Shown here one piece after another: positions 16,457 through 28,163 of a DNA stretch of 64,000 nucleotides; within the stretch, counting starts at the first letter, position 1; every line of letters begins with the position of its first letter. The stretch lies in contig NZ_CP036264.1 of assembly GCF_008035925.1 (NCBI RefSeq), positions 9,119,121 to 9,183,120 of the forward strand. Reading direction: 5' to 3'. Source of the DNA: Stieleria maiorica. GTDB lineage: Bacteria > Planctomycetota > Planctomycetia > Pirellulales > Pirellulaceae. Both the position numbers and the translations under genes were made by a program. A model generated the notes under the pieces. It had not been told where the DNA came from and did no database searches. It saw nothing but the letters and a program-made list of their open reading frames with translations.

Positions 16457-16528
16457 GGGCTGGTAGCTGAGACGGTCTAGCGGCGGTCTGAAGAACCGCA
16501 GACGAGGATTCGAGCGCCTCCCGGCCCA
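16457..16528 (+). tRNA. tRNA-Phe(GAA)
   Basis: Acceptor GGGCTGG/CCGGCCC; anticodon arm GCGGT-CTGAAGA-ACCGC. T arm is irregular (4-bp stem GAGG/CCTC). Discriminator A, then CT, no CCA. Confidence 0.8.
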
Positions 16529-16570
16529 CTGACAAGGAAGATATGCGCCGACGGAATCGGCAAAACACAT

Positions 16571-16670
16571 CGGATACAGGTGCAGATGGAAGCACGCCTG
16601 CTTTGGGAGCAGGAGACTGCGTTTATTTGTGGGTCGCTCCGCGACGGCGGTTCGACTCTCAGGTGTCCGA
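16571..16670 (+). tRNA. tRNA-Pro(TGG) with a hairpin insertion, probably non-functional
   Basis: Acceptor CGGATAC/GTGTCCG, anticodon arm CCTGC-TTTGGGA-GCAGG, discriminator A then CT. About 30 extra bases with the hairpin GTCGC-TCC-GCGAC split the variable region and 5' side of the T stem. An intact Pro(TGG) lies at 17663. Confidence 0.7.
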
Positions 16671-16688
16671 CTTGAATGGGAACAAAAC

Positions 16689-16760
16689 GGTAGTCGAGGG
16701 CTGGTTGCCCAAACACGGCTGATAACCGAGTTGCGCTGAGTTCGATTCCCAGGGCTACCA
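16689..16760 (+). tRNA. tRNA-Ile(GAT)
   Basis: Acceptor GGTAGTC/GGCTACC; anticodon loop CTGATAA; T loop TTCGATT; discriminator A then CT. Confidence 0.85.
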
Positions 16761-16831
16761 CTTATGACAACGAACACGAAGGAGAACCAAACATGCTTCA
16801 GCGATTGAAACGCATACCCCGAATCATTCTT

Positions 16832-16904
16832 GGGGTTGTGGTGTAACTGGCAGCATGACGGACTTTTAATCCGTTCGGTGAGAGTTCGATCCTCTCCGGC
16901 CCCA
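16832..16904 (+). tRNA. tRNA-Lys(TTT)
   Basis: Acceptor GGGGTTG/CGGCCCC; anticodon arm ACGGA-CTTTTAA-TCCGT; T loop TTCGATC; discriminator A then CT. Confidence 0.9.
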
Positions 16905-16915
16905 CTTGCTACCCA

Positions 16916-16988
16916 CGGCGTGTAGCTCAGGGGTGAGAGCGGCGTCCTTATAAGGCGACGGTCGCGGGTTCAATTCCCGCCACGCCGA
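16916..16988 (+). tRNA. tRNA-Ile(TAT)
   Basis: Acceptor CGGCGTG/CACGCCG; anticodon loop CTTATAA; T arm GCGGG-TTCAATT-CCCGC; discriminator A then CT. A TAT isoacceptor reading AUA directly is uncommon in bacteria, which usually use modified CAT. Confidence 0.85.
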
Positions 16989-17015
16989 CTGAAACGGAAC
17001 AACGAAAAGTAATTT

Positions 17016-17088
17016 GGGATTGTGGCAGACAAGGTAATGCATCGGTCTCTTAAACCGAACGATGTGAGTTCGATTCTCACCGGTCCCA
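17016..17088 (+). tRNA. tRNA-Lys(CTT)
   Basis: Acceptor GGGATTG/CGGTCCC; anticodon arm TCGGT-CTCTTAA-ACCGA; T loop TTCGATT; discriminator A then CT. Confidence 0.9.
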
Positions 17089-17102
17089 CTGAAGTACAAC
17101 AA

Positions 17103-17173
17103 GCACTGATCGTCTAGCGGCAAGATACCTCCGTCGTAACGAGGGGACGTCGGTTCAATTCCGACTCGGTGCT
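17103..17173 (+). tRNA. tRNA-Thr(CGT)
   Basis: Acceptor GCACTGA/TCGGTGC; anticodon loop GTCGTAA; T arm GTCGG-TTCAATT-CCGAC; discriminator T then CT. Confidence 0.85.
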
Positions 17174-17228
17174 CTTTGGATGCTTCGTGCATCCCTGATC
17201 TTTGACAATTTGGTTGTGATGCAATTTT

Positions 17229-17299
17229 GCGCCCATGATGTAGCGGTAGCCTGCTGCCTTGCCATGGCGGAAGTGTGGGTTCGACTCCCACTGGGCGCT
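17229..17299 (+). tRNA. tRNA-Gly(GCC)
   Basis: Acceptor GCGCCCA/TGGGCGC; anticodon arm CTGCC-TTGCCAT-GGCGG; T loop TTCGACT; discriminator T then CT. Confidence 0.9.
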
Positions 17300-17308
17300 C
17301 TTTGTTAT

Positions 17309-17382
17309 CAGGGTGTGGGAAAGCTTGGCAATCCGCGTGCTTCGGGTGCACGAGAACGCTGGTTCAAATCCAGCCATCCTGA
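17309..17382 (+). tRNA. tRNA-Pro(CGG)
   Basis: Acceptor CAGGGTG/CATCCTG; anticodon arm CGTGC-TTCGGGT-GCACG; T arm GCTGG-TTCAAAT-CCAGC; discriminator A then CT. Confidence 0.9.
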
Positions 17383-17397
17383 CTGTTGAGTTAAGAA

Positions 17398-17470
17398 TCC
17401 GGTGTGGCCCAATCGGTAGGGCGGCTCCCTGTTAAGGAGACGATTGATGGTTCGAGCCCATCCACCGGAG
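17398..17470 (+). tRNA. tRNA-Asn(GTT)
   Basis: Acceptor TCCGGTG/CACCGGA; anticodon loop CTGTTAA; T loop TTCGAGC; discriminator G then CT. Confidence 0.9.
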
Positions 17471-17488
17471 CTTGCAGTATTGCAATTC

Positions 17489-17556
17489 TCTCCGGCGCGT
17501 AGACGCGACGTGGGCCTTTGAAGCCCGCTGATCGGGTGCGATTCCCGGACGGAGTG
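17489..17556 (+). tRNA. tRNA-Gln(TTG)
   Basis: Anticodon arm GGGC-CTTTGAA-GCCC; T arm TCGGG-TGCGATT-CCCGG; discriminator G then CT. Acceptor has mismatches at both ends and the D arm is short, so the 5' end is approximate. Confidence 0.7.
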
Positions 17557-17572
17557 CTGAAGTTCGATTTAC

Positions 17573-17647
17573 ACCGAGGCGGCAACTGTTGGTCGTTGCA
17601 CCTGGCTCTGAACCAGGCAAACACAGGTTCGATTCCTGTCCTCGGCG
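17573..17647 (+). tRNA. tRNA-Gln(CTG)
   Basis: Acceptor ACCGAGG/CCTCGGC (first pair A-C mismatched); anticodon arm CCTGG-CTCTGAA-CCAGG; T loop TTCGATT; discriminator G then CT. Confidence 0.85.
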
Positions 17648-17662
17648 CTTGTTGAAATTTTG

Positions 17663-17733
17663 CGGGTATAGCTTGGAGTAAGCGGTGTGGTTTGGGACCA
17701 CGCATGGACAGTGTGCGACTCACTGATACCCGA
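17663..17733 (+). tRNA. tRNA-Pro(TGG), intact copy
   Basis: Acceptor CGGGTAT/ATACCCG; D arm GCTT/AAGC; anticodon arm TGTGG-TTTGGGA-CCACG; T arm CAGTG-TGCGACT-CACTG; discriminator A then CT. Confidence 0.85.
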
Positions 17734-17735
17734 CT

Positions 17736-17811
17736 GTGGCCAGATCTGGTGCTGGTTTCCAGAGACTCACTGTGAATGAGTTTGTCGCCGGTTCAATTCC
17801 GGTTGGTCACC
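17736..17811 (+). tRNA. tRNA-His(GTG), copy 1
   Basis: Acceptor GTGGCCA/TGGTCAC; D stem TCTGG/CCAGA; anticodon arm ACTCA-CTGTGAA-TGAGT; discriminator C then CT. Confidence 0.9.
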
Positions 17812-17819
17812 CTTTCAAC

Positions 17820-17891
17820 GCCGCATTCGACTACTGGCTAGGTCAGTTGCTTCTCAGGCAACAGGAAGGAGATCGATACTCCTATGCGGTA
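17820..17891 (+). tRNA. tRNA-Glu(CTC)
   Basis: Acceptor GCCGCAT/ATGCGGT; anticodon arm GTTGC-TTCTCAG-GCAAC; T arm AGGAG-ATCGATA-CTCCT; discriminator A then CT. Confidence 0.85.
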
Positions 17892-17916
17892 CTCGCTTCG
17901 AATGAAGCAATTAAAC

Positions 17917-17991
17917 GGCGTGGTAGATTCTGTTGGCAGAATCGTCTGGTTTTCATCCAGGAGTTCGCGGGTTCGATTCCCGCTCACGTCG
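17917..17991 (+). tRNA. tRNA-Glu(TTC)
   Basis: Acceptor GGCGTGG/TCACGTC with wobble pairs; anticodon arm TCTGG-TTTTCAT-CCAGG; T loop TTCGATT; discriminator G then CT. Confidence 0.9.
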
Positions 17992-18012
17992 CTGCGAGCG
18001 ATCGCAACACTC

Positions 18013-18095
18013 GGAAGTCACCCGGCCGGATGAGGACACTGTCTTGAAAACAGCTGCGGGTTAAACCGTTGTGGGTTCGAGTCCCACGGCTTCCG
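18013..18095 (+). tRNA. tRNA-Ser(TGA)
   Basis: Acceptor GGAAGTC/GGCTTCC; anticodon arm CTGT-CTTGAAA-ACAG; long class II variable arm; T loop TTCGAGT; discriminator G then CT. Confidence 0.9.
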
Positions 18096-18104
18096 CTTCA
18101 ACTT

Positions 18105-18189
18105 GGGAGCGTTTCCACACGGGAGGTTGTAACCCTTCTGCCTTTAATTGTGTGGTAGTCGGCGAGAGGTGCGATTCCTTGCGTTCCCA
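18105..18189 (+). tRNA. tRNA-Tyr(GTA)
   Basis: Acceptor GGGAGCG/CGTTCCC; anticodon arm GGAGG-TTGTAAC-CCTTC; long variable arm as in bacterial Tyr; T loop TGCGATT; discriminator A then CT. Confidence 0.85.
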
Positions 18190-18197
18190 CTTCACTC

Positions 18198-18268
18198 ACG
18201 TCCTTGGTGTAACAGTAGCACTGCTGATTCCAAACCAGTAAGTCAGGGTTCAAATCCTTGGGGACGTG
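18198..18268 (+). tRNA. tRNA-Trp(CCA)
   Basis: Acceptor ACGTCCT/GGGACGT; anticodon loop TTCCAAA; T loop TTCAAAT; discriminator G then CT. Confidence 0.85.
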
Positions 18269-18288
18269 CTCTCCGGATCGACAAACAC

Positions 18289-18360
18289 AGTCCTGTGGTC
18301 CAACGGCTACGACGCCTGTTTTACACACAGGAAACGATGGTTCGATTCCATCCAGGACTA
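18289..18360 (+). tRNA. tRNA-Val(TAC)
   Basis: Acceptor AGTCCTG/CAGGACT; anticodon arm CCTGT-TTTACAC-ACAGG; T arm GATGG-TTCGATT-CCATC; discriminator A then CT. Confidence 0.9.
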
Positions 18361-18367
18361 CTTGCAT

Positions 18368-18441
18368 GCCCAGGTACGCCAATCGGCAGAGCGACTCGGC
18401 TTAAACCCGAGTGTTTGCAGGTTCGATCCCTGCTCTGGGTA
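18368..18441 (+). tRNA. tRNA with anticodon TAA (Leu codon) but class I variable loop
   Basis: Acceptor GCCCAGG/TCTGGGT; anticodon arm CTCGG-CTTAAAC-CCGAG; variable loop only TGTTT; T loop TTCGATC; discriminator A then CT. Bacterial tRNA-Leu normally has a long variable arm. Confidence 0.85.
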
Positions 18442-18505
18442 CTGAAAACTTATGAAAGAGGCGAACCACTAGCCAAGCATTGTACTCTTCAAACACGAAA
18501 CACAT

Positions 18506-18576
18506 GGGGCGCTCGTCCAACGGGAAGACGTCTGTTTTGCAAGCAGAAAATCGGGGTTCGATTCCCCGGTGCTCCA
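18506..18576 (+). tRNA. tRNA-Ala(TGC), copy 1
   Basis: Acceptor GGGGCGC/GTGCTCC; anticodon arm TCTGT-TTTGCAA-GCAGA; T arm CGGGG-TTCGATT-CCCCG; discriminator A then CT. Confidence 0.9.
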
Positions 18577-18592
18577 CTTAGTTGATTCAAAC

Positions 18593-18666
18593 GGCTCGGT
18601 AGGCAACCGGAAGACCACTTTGGCTTAGAACCAGAGATGCTGTGGGTTCGAATCCCACTCGAGCTA
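18593..18666 (+). tRNA. tRNA with anticodon TAG (Leu codon) but class I variable loop
   Basis: Acceptor GGCTCGG/TCGAGCT; anticodon arm TTTGG-CTTAGAA-CCAGA; variable loop GATGCT only; T loop TTCGAAT; discriminator A then CT. Confidence 0.85.
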
Positions 18667-18679
18667 CTGCAAACATCAT

Positions 18680-18753
18680 ACGGGTGTAGTGTCCAACGGC
18701 CAGCACGATTGGCTTCCAACCAATTAGTCTCGGTTCGAATCCGAGTACCCGTA
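18680..18753 (+). tRNA. tRNA-Gly(TCC)
   Basis: Acceptor ACGGGTG/TACCCGT; anticodon arm ATTGG-CTTCCAA-CCAAT; T loop TTCGAAT; discriminator A then CT. Confidence 0.9.
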
Positions 18754-18768
18754 CTTTCCAATTCAATC

Positions 18769-18841
18769 GTCCTCGTGGAGCAGCGGAGTGCTCGCTTGCC
18801 TGTCACGCAAGAGGTCGTCGGTTCAAATCCGATCGGGGACG
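18769..18841 (+). tRNA. tRNA-Asp(GTC)
   Basis: Acceptor GTCCTCG/CGGGGAC; anticodon arm CTTGC-CTGTCAC-GCAAG; T loop TTCAAAT; discriminator G then CT. Confidence 0.9.
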
Positions 18842-18857
18842 CTTTTTCAATCCAAAC

Positions 18858-18936
18858 GGCGCGGTACGCAAACCGGTAAAGCGGCGGAGCTCAAACCTCC
18901 GTGAAATGTCTGTGGGTTCGATTCCCTCCCGCGCTA
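18858..18936 (+). tRNA. tRNA-Leu(CAA)-like, intermediate variable loop
   Basis: Acceptor GGCGCGG/CCGCGCT; anticodon arm CGGAG-CTCAAAC-CTCCG; variable region about 10 bases without a clear stem; T loop TTCGATT; discriminator A then CT. Confidence 0.85.
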
Positions 18937-18946
18937 CTTCCAAAAC

Positions 18947-19030
18947 AGCCAAGTGGTGGAACCGGTAGACACGCGATTCTCAGACGATCGTGCCCATCGC
19001 GGCGTGCGAGTTCGACTCTCGCCTTGGCTA
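18947..19030 (+). tRNA. tRNA-Leu(CAG)
   Basis: Acceptor AGCCAAG/CTTGGCT; anticodon arm CGATT-CTCAGAC-GATCG; proper long variable arm; T loop TTCGACT; discriminator A then CT. The only clearly class II Leu tRNA in the array. Confidence 0.9.
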
Positions 19031-19047
19031 CTTTTCAAGAACATCAT

Positions 19048-19117
19048 TGCAGGTGCGACAGGTGTCCAACTGACCGTCATAAGGTCGGTGTGCTCGGCTC
19101 GATACCGAGACCTGCAA
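19048..19117 (+). tRNA. tRNA-Met(CAT), elongator-type
   Basis: Acceptor TGCAGGT/ACCTGCA fully paired; anticodon loop GTCATAA; T arm CTCGG-CTCGATA-CCGAG; discriminator A then CT. Confidence 0.8.
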
Positions 19118-19135
19118 CTTCAGTGCAAACAACGA

Positions 19136-19204
19136 CGCGGATGGGCCAGTGCTCAGCCAGGCCTCATAAGCCAGGACCGCCGGGTGCGACCCCCGGATCC
19201 GCTA
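19136..19204 (+). tRNA. tRNA-Met(CAT), initiator-like
   Basis: First acceptor pair is mismatched (C1 opposite T72), and GGC/GCC pairs close the anticodon loop CTCATAA, both initiator features. T arm CCGGG-TGCGACC-CCCGG; discriminator A then CT. Confidence 0.8.
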
Positions 19205-19211
19205 CTTCCAA

Positions 19212-19287
19212 GGTCGAGTACGCAAACAGGCAAAGCGGCAAGCATGAGAGGCTTGTGATTTTGTAGGTTCGACTCCTATCTCGACTA
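19212..19287 (+). tRNA. tRNA with anticodon GAG (Leu codon), short variable loop
   Basis: Acceptor GGTCGAG/CTCGACT; anticodon arm CAAGC-ATGAGAG-GCTTG; variable loop about 7 bases; T loop TTCGACT; discriminator A then CT. Confidence 0.85.
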
Positions 19288-19300
19288 CTGGTTAGAAAAC

Positions 19301-19373
19301 GATCGCGTGGTCCAGCGGCGAAGACGTCTGCGTGACATGCAGAAGATCGATGGTTCGATTCCATCCGCGATCA
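19301..19373 (+). tRNA. tRNA-Val(GAC)
   Basis: Acceptor GATCGCG/CGCGATC; anticodon arm TCTGC-GTGACAT-GCAGA; T loop TTCGATT; discriminator A then CT. Confidence 0.9.
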
Positions 19374-19384
19374 CTGATTCACAA

Positions 19385-19455
19385 GGTCTGTAAGTGTTGC
19401 GGCAGCACGCGTCTGTGGTATGGACGAAGACCGGGTTCAATTCCCGGACGGACCT
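19385..19455 (+). tRNA. tRNA-Thr(GGT)
   Basis: Acceptor GGTCTGT/ACGGACC; anticodon arm CGTCT-GTGGTAT-GGACG; T arm CCGGG-TTCAATT-CCCGG; discriminator T then CT. Confidence 0.9.
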
Positions 19456-19462
19456 CTGATAT

Positions 19463-19534
19463 GGGCTGGCATGTTCCAAGGGGGCGACTGATTCTTGCAA
19501 GATCGGTGGGAGGGTTCGATTCCCTTCCGGTCCA
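19463..19534 (+). tRNA. tRNA-Ala(TGC), copy 2
   Basis: Acceptor GGGCTGG/CCGGTCC; anticodon loop CTTGCAA between GATT and GATC; T loop TTCGATT; discriminator A then CT. Confidence 0.8.
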
Positions 19535-19543
19535 CTCACTAAC

Positions 19544-19633
19544 GGAAGGGCAATCCGATCGGCGACGGTATCCGGTTGCTAGCCGGGCGAGCATCTTGAT
19601 GGTGCCTTGAGGGTTCGACTCCCTCTCCTTCCG
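19544..19633 (+). tRNA. tRNA-Ser(GCT)
   Basis: Acceptor GGAAGGG/TCCTTCC; anticodon arm CCGG-TTGCTAG-CCGG; long variable arm; T arm GAGGG-TTCGACT-CCCTC; discriminator G then CT. Confidence 0.9.
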
Positions 19634-19645
19634 CTTGTTTGTAAC

Positions 19646-19717
19646 GGCTCGATGGTGAAACGGACATCATCTCTGGCTTCTAACCAGAAGTTCCGGGTTC
19701 GATTCCTGGTCGGGCTA
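19646..19717 (+). tRNA. tRNA-Arg(TCT)
   Basis: Acceptor GGCTCGA/TCGGGCT; anticodon arm TCTGG-CTTCTAA-CCAGA; T loop TTCGATT; discriminator A then CT. Confidence 0.9.
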
Positions 19718-19788
19718 CTGCCGAATATCGCGGTCACGTTGGCTGCCGGCATCATTCCGCTTCTTTGACACTTTTGAAAGGCATTGTC

Positions 19789-20595
19789 ATGAGCATGCAG
19801 AGTATCGAGCGTCAATTCACGCGGATTGGTGCTCGAGCAAAAGTCCACCCTCCGATCGCCAGACGCTGGGGAACACCTCCCGAAGTTTCGATCGACATCG
19901 GCAACGACGCCGAGGGCGAGTTCTTCGATCTTGCGATTCAGCCCAAGTTGGTCGCTGAAACGCAAGTCATCGACGTACAGCCTTCAATGCGGCACTTGCT
20001 GTTGATGTCGCGTCAAGACGACGGAAAGCACAAGTTCCTGTGCGGACACGATGAACGTCACTGGTTCGTCGCGGCCGTTCCAGAGCGAGCCTCGGTTTCT
20101 TCGGTCAAGACAGCGTTCGACGCGCTCAAGCCGACGGCGGTGCGAGCACTCGAAAACCGTCTCGGCGTGAAGCCGCGAAAGCGAAACCGTCGACGTAACG
20201 AAGCGTTTATCCGTCAAGGTGAATGGTTCTTCGTTCCCGTCGAAAACCCGAGCTTTGTCGATAAGCGACTGGTATTGCGAAACGAGCCAATTGCACGTGG
20301 CAGCGGAAAGCCACACATGTGCGAAGAGGTCGTTCGGCAGGGAGGACAACTGGTTTACGTCAGCAACCAATACCCAAACGGTGTGACCGAGATCCAGCGT
20401 CGACAAATGATAAGTCGTCGACCTGAACTTCGTCATCTGCACTGGGTGGCTCAACGACGAAACCCAAGTGTGTTCGTTCGTGGACGAGTGCGTCATCCGG
20501 ATCACAAGACGATCATCTTGAACGGATGGCACCAAGTCTTGATGAACACAGAAAACGAATCGATTGCAATGCGACACGTCGCGTTCACCGATTAA
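19789..20595 (+). CDS. Unknown basic protein embedded in the tRNA array
   Basis: A 268-residue protein from ATG 19789, with AAAGG 8 bases upstream. It splits the tRNA array into 35 genes before and 4 just after, all on the same strand, so it is probably made from the same transcript. The middle is strongly basic (KPRKRNRRRNEAF near residue 130) and the C-terminal half has repeated Arg clusters, which suggests RNA binding. No membrane segment or enzyme motif is visible, and I do not recognise the family. A tRNA-handling role is inference from position. Confidence 0.7.
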   Translation: MSMQSIERQFTRIGARAKVHPPIARRWGTPPEVSIDIGNDAEGEFFDLAIQPKLVAETQVIDVQPSMRHLLLMSRQDDGKHKFLCGHDERHWFVAAVPERASVSSVKTAFDALKPTAVRALENRLGVKPRKRNRRRNEAFIRQGEWFFVPVENPSFVDKRLVLRNEPIARGSGKPHMCEEVVRQGGQLVYVSNQYPNGVTEIQRRQMISRRPELRHLHWVAQRRNPSVFVRGRVRHPDHKTIILNGWHQVLMNTENESIAMRHVAFTD

Positions 20596-20634
20596 CCCGC
20601 GGCTCTCCACCACGGTGGCGAGCCGTTTCATACG

Positions 20635-20709
20635 GTGTCCGTGGTGTACTCGGTTTGTGCACACTTGCCTGTGAAGCAAGAGGTAAGGGTTCAAATCCCT
20701 TCGGTCACC
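20635..20709 (+). tRNA. tRNA-His(GTG), copy 2
   Basis: Acceptor GTGTCCG/CGGTCAC with one mismatch; anticodon arm CTTGC-CTGTGAA-GCAAG; T loop TTCAAAT; discriminator C then CT. Confidence 0.85.
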
Positions 20710-20719
20710 CTGACGACTC

Positions 20720-20793
20720 GCCGACGTGGCTCGACTGAGAAAGGCACCGCTCTTGTAAAGCGGTTGATGCTGGTGCAAATCCAGTCGTCGGCT
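20720..20793 (+). tRNA. tRNA-Thr(TGT)
   Basis: Acceptor GCCGACG/CGTCGGC; anticodon arm CCGCT-CTTGTAA-AGCGG; T loop TGCAAAT; discriminator T then CT. Confidence 0.85.
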
Positions 20794-20804
20794 CTGATTT
20801 TTTC

Positions 20805-20877
20805 GTCCTTGGAGTGTGCCGGATTCGCACGCGACTTTGCGGAGGTCGTAGACCAGGTTCGATTCCTGGCGAGGACG
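20805..20877 (+). tRNA. tRNA-Arg(GCG)
   Basis: Acceptor GTCCTTG/CGAGGAC; anticodon arm CGACT-TTGCGGA-GGTCG; T arm CCAGG-TTCGATT-CCTGG; discriminator G then CT. Near-copy of the tRNA at 22078. Confidence 0.85.
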
Positions 20878-20888
20878 CTTAGTTACAT

Positions 20889-20960
20889 GACTCGCGGGTG
20901 TGCTGGATAGCATGACAGTCTTCGAAACTGTCGGACCAGGTTCGATTCCTGGGCGGGTTA
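20889..20960 (+). tRNA. tRNA-Arg(TCG)
   Basis: Acceptor GACTCGC/GCGGGTT with wobble pairs; anticodon arm ACAGT-CTTCGAA-ACTGT; T loop TTCGATT; discriminator A then CT. Confidence 0.85.
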
Positions 20961-21135
20961 CTTGCCTCGGCGGCGTTAGGAGCGAGCGAACAAATGGATC
21001 CTGCGTTCACCATTCGAAATGATCGCTCAGATTGTCCTGATCTGACAGCTCGTACTTCACATCAACTCCGCTCCGAGGCTCCATTCACTTAACCATTTCA
21101 AATCATCAATCACGCAAACCGACAGGAGGTGCATC

Positions 21136-22011
21136 ATGATGATTAGCGGTGCTCGACGAGAGTTCATCATTAAGGACACCCACCGCGGTTTGTACTACGA
21201 AGACGGTAAGCTGACGAAGATCCTCGAGGCGGGGCACTACAAGATTCCGCCGCGAAAGCGATTCTTCAAGAAGCTACCGACCGTCGAGTGCATGCTGGTC
21301 GACGTTCGTGAGCGAGAGCTGACGATCAAGGGCCAGGAAATCTTGACGGCTGACAAGGTGGCTATCCGAGTCAGCATTCTGGTGCAGTTCCGTGTGACCG
21401 ATCCGAAGGCTGCGATCCACACGGTCGATAGCTTTGAGGACCGACTTTACAGCGACGTGCAGCTAGCAGCGCGACGTTCACTGGCGTCGATGACGCTGGA
21501 GGAAATCCTGACGAACCGAAACCGGCTGAGTGAGGATATTCTGTCCGACGTCACCGAATCGGCTGGCAGCTACGGTGTGACGATCCGACGAGCCGACGTG
21601 AAGGACTTGATCTTCCCGGGAAACCTGCAGGAGATCATGAACCGCGTTCTGGCAGCCGAACGACACAGCCAGGCTCAGCTGGTCGAAGCACGAACGCGTG
21701 CGGAGGTCGAGCAGATCGAGGCGGAGTCTCGAGCTGAAATCACGCGACGCGATGCCCAGGCAGATGCCGAAGCACGACGACTGCGTGAGCAGGCCGAAGC
21801 GGAAGCAACGCGTTCGAAAGCGGAAGCCGAAACGCAAGCGTACGCGGAACGTCTCAAGGCAGCCGAGGCGCTGGAAGGCCACCCGGCACTGCTGCGACTG
21901 GCCGAACTCGAAACGCTGCGTGAACTGGCCAAGAACGGCAACGCTCGACTGTACCTCGGTCTCGACCGAGTCAGTCTAAACGGAACGGATTCTGGAAAGC
22001 ACGATTCGTGA
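21136..22011 (+). CDS. Slipin/SPFH (band 7) domain protein without membrane anchor
   Basis: A 291-residue protein preceded by an ideal AGGAGGTG site. Residues about 15-170 form an SPFH domain (VDVRERELTIKGQEILTADKVAIRVSI, FEDRLYSDVQLAARRSL, IRRADVKDLIFPGNL), and about 175-255 form a long Ala/Glu/Arg coiled coil. The N-terminal hydrophobic helix of stomatins is missing, so it would be soluble. SPFH proteins assemble into large rings or cages. Slipins recur in bacterial RNA-repair gene neighbourhoods, and here one lies between tRNA genes and upstream of Ro60, consistent with scaffolding RNA handling (inference). Confidence 0.85.
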   Translation: MMISGARREFIIKDTHRGLYYEDGKLTKILEAGHYKIPPRKRFFKKLPTVECMLVDVRERELTIKGQEILTADKVAIRVSILVQFRVTDPKAAIHTVDSFEDRLYSDVQLAARRSLASMTLEEILTNRNRLSEDILSDVTESAGSYGVTIRRADVKDLIFPGNLQEIMNRVLAAERHSQAQLVEARTRAEVEQIEAESRAEITRRDAQADAEARRLREQAEAEATRSKAEAETQAYAERLKAAEALEGHPALLRLAELETLRELAKNGNARLYLGLDRVSLNGTDSGKHDS

Positions 22012-22077
22012 TGGAAGCAAATCGTGTATCCGATTCAAGCAGGACCGGTGCCCCGTTCATCGGTTCTGCGGATTTTC

Positions 22078-22175
22078 GTCCTTGGAGTGTGCCGGACAGC
22101 ACACGACGTCGATCCTGAGGATCGCTCCGCGATGTGCCGAAGGTCGTAGATCAGGTTCGATTCCTGGCGAGGACG
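22078..22175 (+). tRNA. tRNA-Arg-like gene with about 25 extra bases in the anticodon region
   Basis: Acceptor, D arm and T arm nearly repeat the Arg(GCG) gene at 20805 (GTCCTTG/CGAGGAC; D stem GTGT/GCAC; T arm with CAGG-TTCGATT-CCTGG), and CT follows discriminator G. The anticodon arm CGAC...GGTCG holds an inserted hairpin including CGATC-CTGAG-GATCG and GATCGCTCCGCGATG. The anticodon cannot be assigned; it is probably a damaged gene or one carrying an intron-like insert. Confidence 0.6.
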
Positions 22176-22204
22176 CTTTGCACATATAATTGACGCCAAT
22201 ACAA

Positions 22205-22729
22205 ATGGAGAACACGACGCAAACCCAAACGATTGCATGTATCGATGTAGGCTACACGGATAGTGCAGCGCGAGCTGCGTGCGTTGTGATCGACAATTGG
22301 CGAGCCTCACGCCCAGTCGCCGAACATGTGGCGAAAATCCATGAGCTGAAAGAGTATCAGCCCGGCGAATTCTATCGTCGAGAACTGCCGTGCATCCAAG
22401 TGGTGCTGGCAAAACTCGATCAACCACCGACTTGCATCGTGGTCGACGGCTACGTTTGGCTGGATGGAAATGACCGTCCGGGATTGGGTGCTCACCTCTA
22501 CGAGACGCTTGATCGCAAGATTCCAATCATCGGCGTGGCGAAGAATCCGTTCAAAGAAACGGACCACGCCACTGAGCTCCGCAGAGGCACAAGCGATCGG
22601 CCGCTCTACGTTACGGCCGTGGGCATCCCAATCGCTCAAGCAGTGTTGAATATAGGTGCCATGCATGGCCCACATCGACTTCCAACAATATTGAAGCGAG
22701 TCGATCAGTTGAGCCGTGGTGGAAATTAG
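22205..22729 (+). CDS. nfi: Endonuclease V family protein
   Basis: A 174-residue protein from ATG 22205. Family landmarks: ACIDVGY with the first catalytic Asp (about residue 12), YRRELPCI with the catalytic Glu, CIVVDGYVWLD with the second Asp, GAHLYETLD and IGVAKNPF. Endonuclease V cuts next to inosine in DNA and, in several organisms, RNA. It is shorter than E. coli Nfi but has the complete core. Its place among tRNA genes makes an RNA or tRNA substrate worth considering (inference). Confidence 0.8.
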   Translation: MENTTQTQTIACIDVGYTDSAARAACVVIDNWRASRPVAEHVAKIHELKEYQPGEFYRRELPCIQVVLAKLDQPPTCIVVDGYVWLDGNDRPGLGAHLYETLDRKIPIIGVAKNPFKETDHATELRRGTSDRPLYVTAVGIPIAQAVLNIGAMHGPHRLPTILKRVDQLSRGGN

Positions 22730-22821
22730 CGAACCCAATCGCTTGCCATGAGTCTTAATCGTCAACTTGTTTACATCCGAAGCCAATCGCAGATTTTGGA
22801 GCGGACCGATGCAATACGAAA

Positions 22822-23022
22822 ATGAGCACAACGAAGACCATTGCTTTCGAGCCGATGAGTAAACGCCGACGCGGCTTCCCCTCGGAGACTCACGTCAAGT
22901 GTGGACTGCGAATCGTCCACGGCGACAAAACACTCGAAGAAAAGCTTGGACGCAATGATCCCTGCCCATGCGGAAGCGGCCTGCGATTCAAACGATGTTG
23001 CCTCAAATCGGGCCACTTTTGA
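22822..23022 (+). CDS. Small SEC-C motif protein
   Basis: A 66-residue peptide ending in [19 protein letters not shown], the SEC-C zinc-binding motif (C-x-C-x8-C-C type) found at the end of SecA and in many small proteins. The first 45 residues are basic. An in-frame ATG 11 codons later is an alternative start. It may deliver a zinc-finger contact to a partner; no partner is evident. Confidence 0.75.
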
Positions 23023-23092
23023 TGGCTCCAATCGAGACGACTACTTTTAGGGACAAGGATTGAAACATGTCCGTCGCATCGGCGGACAACAA

Positions 23093-23163
23093 AACGCTGG
23101 AGCCAGATGGCCAGGCAACCGGCTGCAACCCGGTCGAAGTGGGTTCGACTCCCACCAGCGTTT
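23093..23163 (+). tRNA. tRNA-Cys(GCA)
   Basis: Acceptor AACGCTG/CAGCGTT; D stem GCC/GGC; anticodon GCA in CTGCAAC; T arm GTGGG-TTCGACT-CCCAC; discriminator T then CT. Last canonical tRNA before the small-RNA array. Confidence 0.88.
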
Positions 23164-23165
23164 CT

Positions 23166-23238
23166 GACGAATCGACTGCAGGCCTGGATTACATATTGCT
23201 AATGTGACCCATCTGAGCTGCTACCTCGTCGATCCGTC
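23166..23238 (+). ncRNA. Y-RNA-like unit A (minimal)
   Basis: End stem GACGAATCGAC (23166-23176) pairs with GTCGATCCGTC (23228-23238), 10 of 11 pairs. It shows the shared 5' block (ACTGC, GGA, TACAT) and 3' block (TCTGA, ACCTCGTCG) but only 17 bases between them, so it lacks the tRNA-like part. Probably a degenerate or minimal member. Confidence 0.6.
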
Positions 23239-23252
23239 GCAAACCAACAATG

Positions 23253-23417
23253 CTTGAACTGCCGTTTGGGTCTACATATGAGGAGCCTAAGGTAGCGATG
23301 CCGGGCGACCGGCTAGTGAACGTCACCGGAGTCTCTCGCAGACAAAGGTGCCAGTCAACGATCGGCGAAAGCCGAGAACGGACGCTCTTAAACGACTCAA
23401 CAACCACCTCGTTCAAG
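23253..23417 (+). ncRNA. Y-RNA-like unit B (non-tRNA insert)
   Basis: End stem CTTGAAC (23253-23259) pairs perfectly with GTTCAAG (23411-23417). Shared 5' and 3' blocks are present. The interior has no T loop; instead it holds a different structured segment, including the tetraloop hairpin TCGGC-GAAA-GCCGA. Perhaps a different effector module on the same end stem. Confidence 0.6.
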
Positions 23418-23427
23418 TATAAAACAC

Positions 23428-23549
23428 GGCGACTGCCGGTTCGGAATACATGCTAACCAATGTGCCGTCCAGTGAGTCTGGCAACGACGTTCGCGTCGTT
23501 GGTGGGTTCGATTCCCACACGTTTGTGATCTGACCAATACCTCGTCGCC
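23428..23549 (+). ncRNA. Y-RNA-like unit C (T arm with short closed stem)
   Basis: End stem GGCGAC (23428-23433) pairs with GTCGCC (23544-23549). The interior has hairpins CCAG-TGAGT-CTGG and AACGAC/GTCGTT, a T arm GTGGG-TTCGATT-CCCAC and a short closed stem (ACA/TGT) where an acceptor would be. No D arm is seen. Confidence 0.65.
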
Positions 23550-23558
23550 AACCATACA

Positions 23559-23699
23559 CAACTGACTGCCGATTCGGAGTACATAGGGTTCTGTGGTCGA
23601 AAGACCTTGCGGGTTCGAATCCCGTCTGCGATCCACGATCGTAGTGGTGAAATTGGAAGACACGCGGAAAAAAGCCTCTGGTCAACACCTCGTCGGTTG
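23559..23699 (+). ncRNA. YrlA/Y-RNA-like unit D with permuted class II tRNA fold
   Basis: End stem CAACTGAC (23559-23566) pairs with GTCGGTTG (23692-23699), one wobble pair. Inside, the order is variable-arm hairpin GGTC-GAAA-GACC, T arm GCGGG-TTCGAAT-CCCGT, acceptor strand CTGCGAT, 5-base loop CCACG, acceptor strand ATCGTAG, then a Leu-like D arm (GTG...CAC with TTGG). Thus the 3' half of a tRNA precedes its 5' half. Confidence 0.78.
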
Positions 23700-23716
23700 C
23701 TTTTGAACACGAACAT

Positions 23717-23835
23717 GGCGACTGCCAGTTTGGAATACATGGATTAAGACACGTGCCTGCACGAGAAGCGGGTTCGAGTCCCGTCCAGCATCGCTGGTCG
23801 TCTATCTGATGCTTCTGAACGACAACCTCGTCGCC
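23717..23835 (+). ncRNA. YrlA/Y-RNA-like unit E with partial permuted tRNA fold
   Basis: End stem GGCGAC (23717-23722) pairs with GTCGCC (23830-23835). Inside: small hairpin CGTG-CCTG-CACG, T arm GCGGG-TTCGAGT-CCCGT, then acceptor-like hairpin CCAGC-ATC-GCTGG closed by three bases. The D arm is rudimentary (GTCTA). Confidence 0.7.
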
Positions 23836-23843
23836 GACCATAC

Positions 23844-23976
23844 ACGATTGACTGCCAGGTTGGACTACATCACGCGACGGTCGCGGGTTCGAATCCCGCC
23901 AAAGCGAACCGTTGGCTCGCTTTGTAGCTCAGTGGGTAGAGCATCGAACTGTCTGATCGATAACTTCGTTGATCGT
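23844..23976 (+). ncRNA. YrlA/Y-RNA-like unit F with permuted tRNA fold
   Basis: End stem ACGATTGAC (23844-23852) pairs with GTTGATCGT (23968-23976), nine pairs with two wobbles. Inside: T arm GCGGG-TTCGAAT-CCCGC, acceptor CAAAGCG, 12-base loop, acceptor CGCTTTG, then TA and D arm GCTC-AGTGGGTA-GAGC. The acceptor strands are perfectly complementary in reversed order. Confidence 0.8.
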
Positions 23977-24026
23977 ATTTGCAAATCCATGAGCGAAAGC
24001 CCAGCGTGGCCCGCTCAAACAAGACA

Positions 24027-24156
24027 CGACTGACTGCCGAGTTGGAGTACATCGACTTTTAATCGAAGGATGCGGGTTCGAGTCCCGTCGGTTTGGCCAA
24101 GCCGAGCCGTAGCTCAATTGGGAGAGCTTATCTCTGACACATCACTTCGTCAGCCG
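24027..24156 (+). ncRNA. YrlA/Y-RNA-like unit G with permuted Lys-like tRNA fold
   Basis: End stem CGACTGAC (24027-24034) pairs with GTCAGCCG (24149-24156), 7 of 8. Inside: anticodon-arm-like hairpin TCGA-CTTTTAA-TCGA, T arm GCGGG-TTCGAGT-CCCGT, acceptor CGGTTTG, loop GCCAAGC, acceptor CGAGCCG, TA, D arm GCTC-AATTGGGA-GAGC. T-run follows the end stem. Confidence 0.8.
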
Positions 24157-24300
24157 TTTTCATTTTCATTTGCTCGTTGAGAGTAACCATGCGTGTGCAA
24201 TTTCAATTCTTCGCCATTACGAAATCCGGCGCCGAGTAATCGGACGTCGAGCGAAGACTGTCTGCACATTCAAAACTACTTTCATCAAGCGATATGAATC

Positions 24301-24666
24301 ATGGAAACCACAACCGAAACCAACTTCGCGACGAACGTGGCAGCACGCGTCGCTGGAGAAGACATCAAACCAGGAGACTACGTCACCGCTTTGACAGAGA
24401 TCTACGAACTGCCATCGTTCCTGTGGTGCTGCACAAGCAGCACGCTCGCGGCGGACGAACCAGTTCGATCGGTCTACAAAGCCCGTGACGCTGGCCAGCC
24501 CAGCAAAGTCATCACCGTCTGCTTGCCGTTCGTTTACACCAAGCAAGCGAGAGGCGGTACCGCGATCTTCGACATCCGCAAACACCAGCTTGTCCGGCTC
24601 GACCGAGGCACTGGTCGCAAGGTGTGGAAGCGATTGCGGAAGAACTTGAAGAAGAAACGGAAATAG
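24301..24666 (+). CDS. Unknown protein inside the Y-RNA-like array
   Basis: A 121-residue protein lying between units G and H on the same strand. The C-terminus is very basic (RKVWKRLRKNLKKKRK), suggesting RNA binding; a Cys pair (WCCTSS) lies near residue 42. No recognised domain. The 144 bases between unit G and this gene hold nothing else I can identify. Being embedded among the small RNAs suggests a linked function, unproven. Confidence 0.6.
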   Translation: METTTETNFATNVAARVAGEDIKPGDYVTALTEIYELPSFLWCCTSSTLAADEPVRSVYKARDAGQPSKVITVCLPFVYTKQARGGTAIFDIRKHQLVRLDRGTGRKVWKRLRKNLKKKRK

Positions 24667-24675
24667 CAAGCGCAC

Positions 24676-24818
24676 ACGATCGACTGCCGATTCGGAGTAC
24701 ATGGTTCATACCCCGGGTGTCGTGAGTTCGAATCTCACCGGCCCAACTGTTTAACCAAAGCAGGGCCGTAGCTCAGTGGCAGAGCACCATAAAGTCTCTG
24801 ATCACAACTTCGTCGATC
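24676..24818 (+). ncRNA. YrlA/Y-RNA-like unit H with permuted Met-like tRNA fold
   Basis: End stem CGATCGAC (24676-24683) pairs perfectly with GTCGATCG (24811-24818). Inside: loop with TTCATAC, T arm GTGAG-TTCGAAT-CTCAC, acceptor CGGCCC then A and CT, a 16-base loop, acceptor GGGCCG, TA and D arm GCTC-AGTGGCA-GAGC. A T-rich run follows. Confidence 0.8.
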
Positions 24819-24858
24819 GCGTTTTGTTTTCCAAATGCATCACAACTAATAACCGAAC

Positions 24859-24965
24859 ACATTCGACTGCCGGAGTGGAGTACATGGCTTTGCAGGTTCG
24901 ATTCCCGCCCGGCCCGCTGACTTGATTTCAATCGGGCCGGATCTCTGCCCATACCTTCGTCGAAT
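24859..24965 (+). ncRNA. Y-RNA-like unit I with permuted acceptor/T-arm minihelix
   Basis: End stem CATTCGAC (24859-24866) pairs perfectly with GTCGAATG (24958-24965), followed by a T run. Inside is only a T arm (GCAGG-TTCGATT-CCCGC, one mismatch) and perfectly paired acceptor strands CCGGCCC then GGGCCGG joined by 18 bases. D and anticodon arms are absent. Confidence 0.75.
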
Positions 24966-25055
24966 GCTTTTTCCAAATCACCAAAGTGGGATAAGCATCA
25001 GGCCTGTCAATATTTGACAAGTCGGATGCTCATCTCACACAAGTTTCTTCGCCGT

Positions 25056-25073
25056 GGATCTTGTTAAAGATCC
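25056..25073 (+). promoter_or_regulatory. Small hairpin in the Ro60 leader
   Basis: GGATCTT pairs with AAGATCC around GTTA, about 50 bases before the Ro60 start. No T run follows, so it is not a terminator. It may stabilise the leader or regulate; meaning unknown. Confidence 0.35.
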
Positions 25074-25121
25074 CCGGCTGCCCGGATGTTGAACAACATC
25101 CATCACATGTAGGAGGTCAAG

Positions 25122-26765
25122 ATGGCCAACAAGAGTCTGTTTTCGAGCATCACGAGCGTTCTACCACGGGCGACGACTGTCAACGAAGCCGGCGGTCCGG
25201 CGTACAAGTTCCCGGCAAAGCATGCGCTCGCGCAGCTGGCGGCTACCGGTACGTTCGGAAACGTGTTCTACGCGACGGCCTCGGATCAGCTTGACCAACT
25301 GCGAAAGCTGATCGACGACGTCGGCGACAACGAGTTCCTGGCAAAGCTGGCTGTCTACTCACGTGAGCGTGCTTACATGAAGGACATGCCGGCGGCGCTG
25401 CTCGTCACGCTGTCGACTCGCGACACGGCTCTGATGCACAAGGTCTTTGACCGAGTTGCTGACAACGGCCGCGTTCTGCGCACGGTGTTCCAGATGGTTC
25501 GTTCAGGACAGTTCGGTCGCAAGGGTCTGTCGTCTTCGCTTCAGCGTGCGTTCCAGCGTTGGCTGAACGAGGCTTCGACGGGTAAGTTGCTGTCAAGCTC
25601 GATCGGTAACGATCCGAGCCTGCGCGACGTCCTGCGAATGGCACGTCCGACGCCGAAGGATGACGCTCGTCGAGCGTTGTTTGGTTGGCTGACCGATAAG
25701 GAAGTCGACAAGTGGGCTCCGGCAACGGAAGCTGACTTGCCGGCCGAGGTTCAGTCACTGAAGGCGTTCCGTGCTGTGGAGACCGAAGAGGCTCAGGCGT
25801 TGATCGCGGGCGACCTGCAAGTTCGATGGGACTTGCTGGCTGATTCAGCCAAGGGTCCGATTGTCTGGAAGGCAATTGCCCGACAGATGGGACCGCAGGC
25901 TCTGCGCATGAACCTGAACACGCTGTTGCGTCACGACGTTTTCAAGAACGGTAACAAGCCTGACGATGCAATGATCGATTACGTTGCCGGCCGCATCGCG
26001 GATCCGGAGGCGATTCGACGTTCACGTCAGTTCCCATACCAGTTCTTGGCGGCGTACCTGAACGCTGCGGACGAGGTTCCACACAAGATCAAGTCAGCGT
26101 TGCATGACGCGGCGGAGATTGCATGTGGCAACATCCCGCAGTTGCCGGCGCCGGTCATCATCGGTCTGGACACGTCTGGATCGATGGGATGCTCGGTGAC
26201 GGGTTGGCAAGGTCGAGGCCGCACGTCGAAGATGCGTTGCGTTGACGTCGCCGCGTTGTTCGCCGCAGCGATCCTGCGTCGTAACCCGGACAGCGTCGTC
26301 ATTCCGTTCGACACGCAAGCCTACACGGCAAAGATCGATCCAAGTGATTCGATCCTGAGCCTGTCGGCACGGCTGTCAAAGTACGGAGGCGGCGGAACGG
26401 ATGTGTCATTGCCGTTGGTCGAGGCCAACAAGCGATACGCAAAGCGTACGTTTGCTGGAATCGTCCTGGTCAGCGACAACGAAAGCTGGATCAACTCGGG
26501 ACGTGTCAACGAATACGGCCGAGGCGGTTCGACTGGCGTCATGACCGAGTGGCAGAAGTTCGTCACGAACGCTCGCCGCCACGGCACCACCGATCCGAAG
26601 TTGGTCTGCATCGACATCGCCCCATACGGCAACACGCAAGCACCCGATCGCCAGGACATCCTGAACATCGGAGGCTTCAGCGACGCAGTGTTCAACGTCG
26701 TTAGTAACTTCCTAGAGTCCGACACCAACCGTTTCGTCCGCGAGGTCGAAGCCGTTGAACTGTAG
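25122..26765 (+). CDS. rsr: Ro60/Rsr-type TROVE domain protein
   Basis: A 547-residue protein with an excellent AGGAGG site 6 bases before ATG 25122. The N-terminal two thirds is a TROVE HEAT-repeat ring ([32 protein letters not shown]). The C-terminal third is a von Willebrand A domain with the MIDAS motif DTSGSMG starting at residue 350. Length agrees with bacterial Ro proteins. Ro proteins form a ring that binds misfolded RNA ends and Y RNAs; in Deinococcus Rsr is tethered by a Y RNA to PNPase, and YrlA RNAs mimic tRNA. It directly follows nine Y-RNA-like units. Confidence 0.93.
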
Positions 26766-27008: not shown

Positions 27009-27563
27009 ATGAAATCTAAAGATAAACTCGTCTCCACCAGCAAATTCCTCAGCTTGGTCCTGCGGCATCGGCCCGAAGTGATTGGTGCAAAGCTAGACCC
27101 TGAAGGTTGGCTCGCGATCGACGAATTGATTGCCCAAGCAAACTCCCATGGAAAGGCATTAACGCTGGAACTGCTTCACGAAGTGGTTGCGACGAACGAC
27201 AAGAAGCGTTTCGCCTTGAGCGACGATGGATTGCGCATCCGCGCCAGCCAGGGTCACTCGGTCTCCGGTGTCGAACTCAACCTCGAACAGCAGACGCCTC
27301 CCGAGGTTCTCTACCACGGAACTGTCGCGGCATTTCTCGACAGCATTCGAGCGACCGGTCTGCAAAAGCGATCACGTCACCACGTCCATCTTTCGCCCGA
27401 TGAAGAAACCGCGACCAAAGTTGGATCGCGGCGAGGCAAGCCCATCATCTTGAGAGTCGCAGCCGAAACCATGCATCGTGACGGCCACCAATTCTATCTC
27501 TCCGCCAACGGAGTCTGGCTCGTCGACGCCGTCCCACCGATCTACCTGACTTTTACAGAATGA
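27009..27563 (+). CDS. kptA: RNA 2'-phosphotransferase (Tpt1/KptA)
   Basis: A 184-residue protein from ATG 27009; a GTG/TTG start upstream would add residues outside the family. Core motifs: SKFLSLVLRHRPEVIG at the N-terminus, LYHGT, and the Arg-His signature SRHHVHLS, then IILRVAAETM. It transfers an internal RNA 2'-phosphate to NAD+, giving ADP-ribose cyclic phosphate and nicotinamide, the last step of eukaryotic-type tRNA splicing; the bacterial substrate is unknown. Next to a tRNA/Ro60 locus it fits RNA repair (inference). Confidence 0.92.
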   Translation: MKSKDKLVSTSKFLSLVLRHRPEVIGAKLDPEGWLAIDELIAQANSHGKALTLELLHEVVATNDKKRFALSDDGLRIRASQGHSVSGVELNLEQQTPPEVLYHGTVAAFLDSIRATGLQKRSRHHVHLSPDEETATKVGSRRGKPIILRVAAETMHRDGHQFYLSANGVWLVDAVPPIYLTFTE

Positions 27564-27570
27564 TTGGCTG

Positions 27571-28095: not shown

Positions 28096-28163
28096 AAACT
28101 TCAGTACGGTTGAATGCATAGTAATTCGTTTTTTTGAAGATGACTGTAGGTGGGGGCCAATGA

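What the first reader, a model, noticed from the sequence alone, without database searches (positions are those of the whole stretch)
23166..24965. Nine tandem YrlA-like Y RNAs enclosing circularly permuted tRNAs, next to Ro60
Nine units follow one another on the plus strand. In each, the 5' end block (N..GAC, TGCC, small YGG hairpin, TACAT) and 3' end block (TCTGA, ACYTC, GTC..N) pair with each other within the same unit. The pairing covaries between units: CATTCGAC/GTCGAATG, CGATCGAC/GTCGATCG, CTTGAAC/GTTCAAG, CAACTGAC/GTCGGTTG, ACGATTGAC/GTTGATCGT. Between these strands, units D-H carry a tRNA in permuted order: T arm, 3' acceptor strand, short loop, complementary 5' acceptor strand, D arm. 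YrlA-type Y RNAs are known to have an end stem plus a tRNA mimic and to associate with Ro proteins, and a Ro60 gene follows. A nine-member array with different mimic modules suggests a repertoire of Ro60 adaptors, which I have not seen described.
Basis: partly seen in the sequence, partly recalled or inferred. Interest (0 to 1): 0.95.

Follow-up and report, generated by a model that had tools for sequence, protein, structure and literature searches.

The report
Ro60 RNA array mimicking tRNAs, rRNA
Beside the gene for the RNA-handling ring protein Ro60, this planctomycete carries nine small RNA genes that share one handle but hold up different copies of the translation machinery (rearranged tRNAs, an anticodon arm, and a cut-and-rejoined piece of 23S ribosomal RNA), which suggests a toolkit for bringing tRNA- and ribosome-recognising proteins to Ro60.

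Summary
Nine + strand units share one Y-RNA frame (end stem, internal loop, second stem) and sit just upstream of a Ro60 gene. End stems match their own partner (22 arrays, 136 units: 907 of 1088 pairs; best of 20,000 permutations 776). Such units precede Ro60 in 33 of 35 loci with Ro60 at least 60% identical (two or more in 30). The permuted tRNA order is not new: it is built into Rfam's YrlA family, and tandem YrlA genes also occur in alphaproteobacteria.

Unit B is a circularly permuted mimic of 23S rRNA (helix 69 to helix 72 region), opened at the helix-69 loop. A covariance model built only from such units finds the genome's real 23S; one relative's unit shares 29 of 29 bases with 23S of other genomes. 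Twenty-two species carry the module. Unit A is an anticodon-arm hairpin (Ser GCU); relatives show Asn, Lys, Thr, Pro and Ser loops. A second array type, with different ends, precedes another vWA-type protein and carries the same kinds of module.

Most likely function: exchangeable modules that dock tRNA/rRNA-recognising proteins on Ro60 (inferred). Rival: decoys. No expression or binding data.

The parts
16457..23164 (+). Cluster of 34 tRNA genes directly upstream; the last, tRNA-Cys (23093-23164), ends 1 base before unit A
   Evidence: ARAGORN; 25 over the Rfam cut-off
23166..23238 (+). Unit A: shortest Y RNA; its hairpin carries the anticodon-type loop TTGCTAA (Ser GCU)
   Evidence: fold z -2.8
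23250..23420 (+). Unit B: Y-RNA frame around a circularly permuted mimic of 23S rRNA (helix 69 - CCTAAGGTAGCGA - helix 72 region), opened in the helix-69 loop
   Evidence: fold z -1.5
23428..23549 (+). Unit C: GTCCAGTGAGTCTGG hairpin, long hairpin and T arm; target of the mimicry unknown
   Evidence: no rRNA match above shuffles
23559..23699 (+). Unit D: permuted Leu-like tRNA module with a type II variable arm (likeness read by eye)
   Evidence: sequence
23716..23836 (+). Unit E: T arm and acceptor strands, truncated D arm
23842..23978 (+). Unit F: classic YrlA-type permuted tRNA (T arm - acceptor - D arm)
   Evidence: RF02553 50.1 bits, E 1e-9; called tRNA after rotation
24028..24155 (+). 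Unit G: whole permuted tRNA, with an intact anticodon arm (loop CTTTTAA, Lys UUU)
   Evidence: RF02553 30.8 bits; called tRNA-Lys(ttt) after rotation
24301..24666 (+). 121-aa ORF inside the array, no Pfam or NCBIfam family; homologues inside the array in several relatives
24674..24822 (+). Unit H: YrlA-type permuted tRNA with a vestigial anticodon arm (read by eye)
   Evidence: RF02553 37.7 bits; fold z -3.9
24860..24966 (+). Unit I: T arm plus acceptor helix only (top half of a tRNA)
   Evidence: RF02553 18.5 bits, E 1.3
25122..26765 (+). Ro60 (Rsr) protein, TROVE plus vWA domains
   Evidence: PF25045 E 9.5e-13, PF05731 E 4.6e-9; PDB 2nvo E 7.3e-21

Best explanation
The locus encodes nine Ro60-linked Y RNAs in one array (shown at sequence and covariation level). 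The common frame is the Y-RNA handle: end stem, conserved internal loop and second stem, expected to sit on Ro60 (inferred from YrlA homology). The handles present different mimics of translation-machinery RNA: permuted tRNA bodies, a T-arm/acceptor minihelix, an anticodon arm, and a circularly permuted helix 69-72 region of 23S rRNA (shown; the target of unit C is unknown). The graft seems to follow a rule: the handle enters at an exposed loop of the parent RNA (helix-69 loop in B, anticodon loop in the F-type units of L092 and L095) or beside an arm left whole (G; L084, L090, L164 for helix 69), and the parent's other ends are joined by a short loop (read from sequence). Most likely mechanism: the modules are exchangeable docking pieces. 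Proteins that recognise tRNA or 23S elements (processing nucleases, modification enzymes, assembly factors; PNPase in the known RYPER complex) bind the mimic and are thereby tethered to the Ro60 ring, which passes damaged or misfolded tRNA and rRNA to them (inferred). I put about 0.9 on the array and its mimicry and about 0.5 on the docking mechanism.
For: End-stem pairing: 907 of 1088 against a permutation maximum of 776. 26 of 46 pairs with two-sided changes over 20 B-type units. Position: 143 units within 3.5 kb upstream of Ro60 on its strand, 2 elsewhere on that strand, 5 on the other, over 35 loci. 23S mimicry: 26 B units match the window genome's rRNA at one place, L111:3909-3938, with 28.1-40.5 bits, 21 of the 26 above the best shuffle (29.7); every other match of any unit, B units included, is at most 26.6 bits. 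Model R1, built only from Y-RNA modules, hits the real 23S at E 3.8e-4 (rough), the only hit outside such modules in 395 kb. 29 of 29 identical bases between the G481 unit and 23S of three other genomes. The helix-69 part tracks the host 23S in the 5 genomes where both were read, GAGG with GAGG, GACG with GACG. Anticodon arms: 16 of 40 short units carry a real anticodon loop; 500 shuffles: mean 0.17, maximum 2. A second array type with other ends, upstream of a vWA-type protein, carries whole tRNAs, anticodon arms, a permuted tRNA and (L088) the 23S mimic. YrlA is reported to bind Rsr by its basal stem, to tether PNPase, and to be a DusA/TruB substrate (PMC8394870, passages).
Against: No transcript or binding data. 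All window units are under Rfam's gathering score. Fold energies are only modestly below shuffles, and single-sequence folds miss the tRNA arms in F, H and I. Some arrays are not beside Ro60: of 7 B-unit loci without Ro60 in the stretch that I checked (of 10 such), 4 genomes have a Ro60 match elsewhere and 3 have none; L159 has two units and no Ro60 in 12 kb. Six loci with a 40-43% identical Ro60 have no units. Exact natural anticodon loops are more than docking would seem to need and fit decoys as well. The 5 genomes of the tracking test hold only two states, and 4 of the 8 relatives searched gave no 23S with the pattern. TBK1r's unit has a mixed form.
Confidence: 0.55

Rival explanations
1. 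Decoys. The modules are baits for enzymes that cut or modify tRNA anticodon loops, tRNA bodies and 23S rRNA (toxins of toxin-antitoxin systems, competitors, phage defence), held on or cleared by Ro60.
For: Exact anticodon loops of several tRNAs; module sets differ between genera; array lies behind a 34-tRNA cluster. The idea that YrlA could competitively inhibit an anticodon nuclease is in the discussion of PMC7790460 (passages).
Against: Modules such as F, H and I and the B units with a split helix 69 lack an intact loop; the same paper found no YrlA fragments; no nuclease is identified here.
Confidence: 0.25
2. Ordinary YrlA paralogues: all units do one job and module differences are drift after repeated capture of tRNA pieces.
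For: Tandem YrlA genes exist in alphaproteobacteria; some modules look degraded (E).
Against: The 23S module is kept in 22 species of the collection with an invariant core and covarying stems and tracks host 23S where read.
Confidence: 0.12
3. Permuted tRNA genes that are spliced into working tRNAs; KptA (27009-27563) next door would help.
For: F and G are called tRNAs after rotation; KptA is a tRNA-splicing-type enzyme (PF01885).
Against: A, B, C, I are not whole tRNAs; KptA is found in only 6 of 39 fetched relatives' stretches; 34 ordinary tRNA genes lie beside the array.
Confidence: 0.04
4. Decayed tRNA genes at the end of a tRNA cluster, without function.
For: Position after the cluster.
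Against: Covariation, strand and position bias, 23S module.
Confidence: 0.02

Closest known systems
YrlA Y RNAs (RF02553) of Salmonella and other bacteria
   Same: End stem, internal loop, second stem, then T arm - acceptor - D arm in permuted order; gene beside Ro60/rsr
   Different: Nine units; scores under the gathering threshold; modules beyond the D/T/acceptor mimic: 23S rRNA, anticodon arm, T/acceptor only
Tandem YrlA genes behind Ro60 on Rhizobium, Methylosinus and Novosphingobium plasmids (L166, L165, L168)
   Same: Same frame (GAATGC..ACTACA..CTCGTCGC in L166) and several units in a row
   Different: On the other side of Ro60; rtcR and rtcB annotated beside it in L165 and L166 (L168 carries no annotation); no 23S mimic (model R1, 0 hits in 4 loci)
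RYPER (Rsr - Y RNA - PNPase) of Deinococcus radiodurans
   Same: Idea of a Y RNA tethering a partner to the Ro60 ring (PMC8394870, PMC8058203, passages)
   Different: PNPase as partner; here many modules, partners unknown
rRNA mimicry in RNA regulation (Meyer 2018; only the title seen, in a reference list)
   Same: Non-ribosomal RNA copying an rRNA binding site
   Different: As I recall, mostly cis elements in mRNA leaders of ribosomal proteins; here a separate RNA in a Y-RNA frame, permuted

Membership tests
YrlA (RF02553) | 5' and 3' ends pair in a long stem | tested here: met
   9 of 9 units
YrlA (RF02553) | Permuted tRNA-like domain (T arm, acceptor, D arm) | tested here: inconclusive
   Met in D, F, G, H; not in A, B, C, E, I. 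Only D, F, G, H are filed as YrlA-type; the others share the frame only
YrlA (RF02553) | Score at Rfam gathering cut-off (69 bits) | tested here: not met
   Best 50.1 in the window, best 58.4 in relatives. A curation threshold; E 1e-9 still shows homology
YrlA (RF02553) | Gene next to Ro60/rsr | tested here: met
   33 of 35 loci have at least one unit within 3.5 kb upstream
YrlA (RF02553) | Binds Ro60/Rsr; D and T loops modified by DusA and TruB | not testable with these tools
   Needs biochemistry
23S rRNA mimic (unit B) | Sequence similarity to one place of 23S above chance | tested here: met
   21 of 26 B units above the best shuffle, all 26 at the same place. Window unit B alone: 31.2 bits
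23S rRNA mimic (unit B) | Both strands of helix 69 present, in swapped order, and paired | tested here: met
   Pairs 38-42/164-168 of A1, three of five with two-sided changes; helix number recalled
Ro60 (window 25122-26765) | TROVE and vWA domains | tested here: met
   NCBIfam Rsr equivalog E 4.8e-24 but 84.7 bits, under its cut-off of 900
Ro60 (protein of the second array type, L088) | TROVE and vWA domains | tested here: inconclusive
   No Pfam family at 0.01, VWA_2 only at E 0.096; profile match to Ro60 over the vWA part only, prob 83.8; no Ro60 among PDB matches; structure model too poor

The most novel reading that the evidence does not exclude
Planctomycetes encode an RNA-written catalogue of translation-machinery mimics (anticodon arms of particular tRNAs, tRNA tops, whole permuted tRNAs, 23S helix 69-72) on interchangeable Y-RNA handles. 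At least two handle types are used, each with its own Ro60 or vWA protein, so that the cell can intercept, or recruit, many of the proteins that act on tRNA or the ribosome's core.
Probability: 0.35. Interest if true: 0.95.

Novelty: new variant of a known kind. Interest (0 to 1): 0.88.

Why it matters
Why Y RNAs carry a tRNA mimic is open. An array in which the handle stays and the mimic changes, and in which one mimic is a piece of 23S rRNA that follows the host's own 23S where I could read both, says the module is what matters and gives a direct test: pull down each module and see what it catches. My paper searches (a partial library, key Y-RNA papers not held) listed nothing about a Y RNA that mimics rRNA or a permuted rRNA mimic acting in trans.

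Tried and rejected
Looked for other rRNA mimics among the units: only B units rise above shuffles (9.0 kb around a 23S gene and 3.0 kb around a 16S gene of the window's genome). The target of unit C and of the last unit type (L046, L048, L083, L095: GGTAGCCACG-like) was not found. The idea that the anticodon arms are all t6A-type (U36 A37 A38) failed when Ser UGA and Pro UGG loops appeared. Splicing into tRNAs was weighed and rejected (see rivals). Promoter/terminator scan of 22700-25200: none of either; shuffles gave means of 1.4 and 2.6. Structure of the L088 protein: pLDDT 38, not used. The 121-aa ORF remained without a family (alignment only). Pattern in viral contigs: 0. Two of 24 pattern hits (L086, L101) dropped as chance: no Y ends and no further mimic sequence. 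Papers Chen 2014, Sim and Wolin 2018, Wang 2018 are not held, so I cannot say whether large Y-RNA arrays were already noted there.
Full report
What was checked. The window lies in a genome of 9.9 Mb; named records with the same array are planctomycetes, nearest Stieleria (L093, Ro60 92% identical; Stieleria is Pirellulales), so 'Stieleria or close' is my inference. A cluster of 34 tRNA genes ends with tRNA-Cys at 23164, and the first unit begins at 23166. Nine units follow, then a Ro60 gene (PDB 2nvo, E 7.3e-21).

Frame. Alignment and consensus fold of 20 B-type units show the shape: an end stem of about 8 pairs, an internal loop (TGCC / ACYTC), a second stem (YGGGAG with CTCTGR), then the module. 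26 of 46 pairs show two-sided changes. In the window alone, own partners give 69 of 81 pairs, reached by 17 of 100,000 permutations; over 22 arrays of three or more units, 136 units, 907 of 1088 against a permuted maximum of 776 in 20,000.

Relatives. The window's Ro60 has matches in 59 of 296 genomes of the order. I fetched stretches around 40 of these places. Of 35 loci, window included, with Ro60 at least 60% identical, 33 have at least one unit and 30 at least two within 3.5 kb upstream on the same strand: 143 units there, 2 elsewhere on that strand, 5 on the other strand. Of the two without, L012 ends 1.5 kb upstream of Ro60 and still has a YrlA match (35.3 bits); L069 has 5.6 kb upstream and a Ro60 match that lacks the first part of the protein. 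Six loci with a 40-43% identical Ro60 have none.

Rfam. YrlA (RF02553) matches F (50.1 bits, E 1e-9), H (37.7), G (30.8) and I (18.5, E 1.3), all on the + strand and all under the gathering score of 69; relatives reach 58.4. The family model itself has the order T arm, acceptor, D arm, so permutation is known. Tandem YrlA genes also stand between Ro60 and rtcB in Rhizobium (98.4, 59.8, 33.0 bits) and Methylosinus (49.9, 27.5), and behind Ro60 in an unannotated Novosphingobium record (63.8, 40.3, 35.7, 33.4), so tandem arrangement is not confined to planctomycetes.

Unit B is a 23S rRNA mimic. It contains CCTAAGGTAGCGA, which occurs three times in the 9.9 Mb genome: in two 23S genes and in unit B. 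In a search of the units against 9.0 kb around a 23S gene and 3.0 kb around a 16S gene of this genome, 26 B units match at one place, L111:3909-3938, with 28.1 to 40.5 bits (best L090, 27 of 29 bases; window unit B 31.2); 21 of 26 exceed the best shuffle (29.7), and every other match of any unit is at most 26.6 bits. The 5' half of the helix-69 stem stands at the 3' end of the module and the 3' half at its start, so the piece is circularly permuted with the handle in the helix-69 loop; in L084, L090 and L164 the loop is whole instead. L164 (G481) shares 29 of 29 bases with four 23S stretches of three other genomes; G481's own 23S was not read. A covariance model of the modules (R1) finds the real 23S at E 3.8e-4 (rough calibration), its only hit outside such modules in 395 kb. 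In the 5 genomes where both were read, the helix-69 bases of unit B follow the host 23S (GAGG or GACG); 4 of the 8 relatives searched gave no 23S with the pattern, and TBK1r (L092) has a mixed form, ATGACGAGCC, whose 23S I did not read.

Spread of the 23S module. A pattern scan of the one-genome-per-species collection gave 24 stretches: 22 real (20 titled as planctomycetes of some rank, 2 titled only 'bacterium'), 2 chance; none in viral contigs. End stems pair in 26 of 26 B units read (the 3' block was chosen for best pairing). R1 finds it in 10 of 392 genomes of the phylum, under strict filters; in 6 of the 7 stretches fetched for these Ro60 (71-75%) follows.

Anticodon arms. Forty short units without T arm were examined, apparent false ones included: 16 carry a hairpin whose 7-base loop is exactly the anticodon loop of a tRNA called in the same loci (Ser GCU, Ser UGA, Pro UGG, Asn GUU, Lys CUU, Thr GGU); 500 shuffles gave a mean of 0.17 and a maximum of 2. 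Five of the 16 are the window and four near relatives, so they are not independent. The window's own tRNA-Ser(GCU) loop is TTGCTAG, one base off unit A. Unit G keeps a whole arm: Lys UUU here, Asn GUU, Lys CUU or Arg UCU loops in relatives.

A second array type. L088 has the 23S module in another frame (CCAGGGA with TCCCCTGG, then GTCAAT with GTTGAC), among five units upstream of a 535-aa vWA-like protein without a Pfam family. Relatives of that protein occur in 10 of 392 genomes of the phylum. Two have arrays of the same frame: five units in G494, and in G371 two by script and a third by eye; the modules are whole unpermuted tRNAs with a short or missing acceptor stem, anticodon arms (Tyr, Ser, Asn loops) and a permuted tRNA. 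G308 shows none in the 1.7 kb printed. Seven of seven paralogue loci have a single short RNA of this frame upstream. Profile comparison with Ro60 gives probability 83.8 over the vWA part only. So the same kinds of module ride on two handles.

How it may work. Shown: frame, covariation, mimicry, position, spread. Inferred: transcription together with the tRNA cluster (units are 5 to 49 bases apart except around the 121-aa ORF, and the scan found no promoter or terminator), binding to Ro60, docking of tRNA- and rRNA-specific proteins. Known support: YrlA binds Rsr by its stem, tethers PNPase, and is a substrate of DusA and TruB (PMC8394870, passages). The decoy rival has a published seed in PMC7790460 (passages).

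Limits. No expression data; single-sequence folding energies are ordinary (z -1.1 to -3.9) and miss the tRNA arms in F, H and I; some arrays lie apart from Ro60; key Y-RNA papers could not be read.

Noticed in passing
window 16457-23164: An extra, mostly lower-scoring tRNA set: 25 of the genome's 69 Rfam tRNA hits lie in this cluster. In five of the seven stretches tRNA-Cys also stands just before the array.
   Followed up: partly
window 24301-24666: Conserved 121-aa protein of unknown family inside the array, 41-98% identical in eight fetched relatives; in L047 and L056 the homologue lies away from the array.
   Followed up: partly
window 19765-20595: 276-aa protein without Pfam family inside the tRNA cluster, 71-97% identical in six fetched relatives.
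   Followed up: no
window 27009-29216: KptA (RNA 2'-phosphotransferase), a 174-aa protein and an ADP-ribosylglycohydrolase follow Ro60; KptA is in only 6 of 39 fetched relatives' stretches.
   Followed up: partly
L139-L145, upstream of the vWA gene: A single conserved RNA of the second frame type (GTGGGACT..TTCCCC) in 7 of 7 loci; possibly a Y RNA of an unnamed vWA protein family.
   Followed up: partly
L081, L082, L098 (B units): Long insertions inside hairpins of the 23S module.
   Followed up: no
L038, L044, L093 (units F or H): Acceptor loops enlarged by a repeat-like GAGTCTTGAG-type insert, so the loop seems to tolerate insertions.
   Followed up: no
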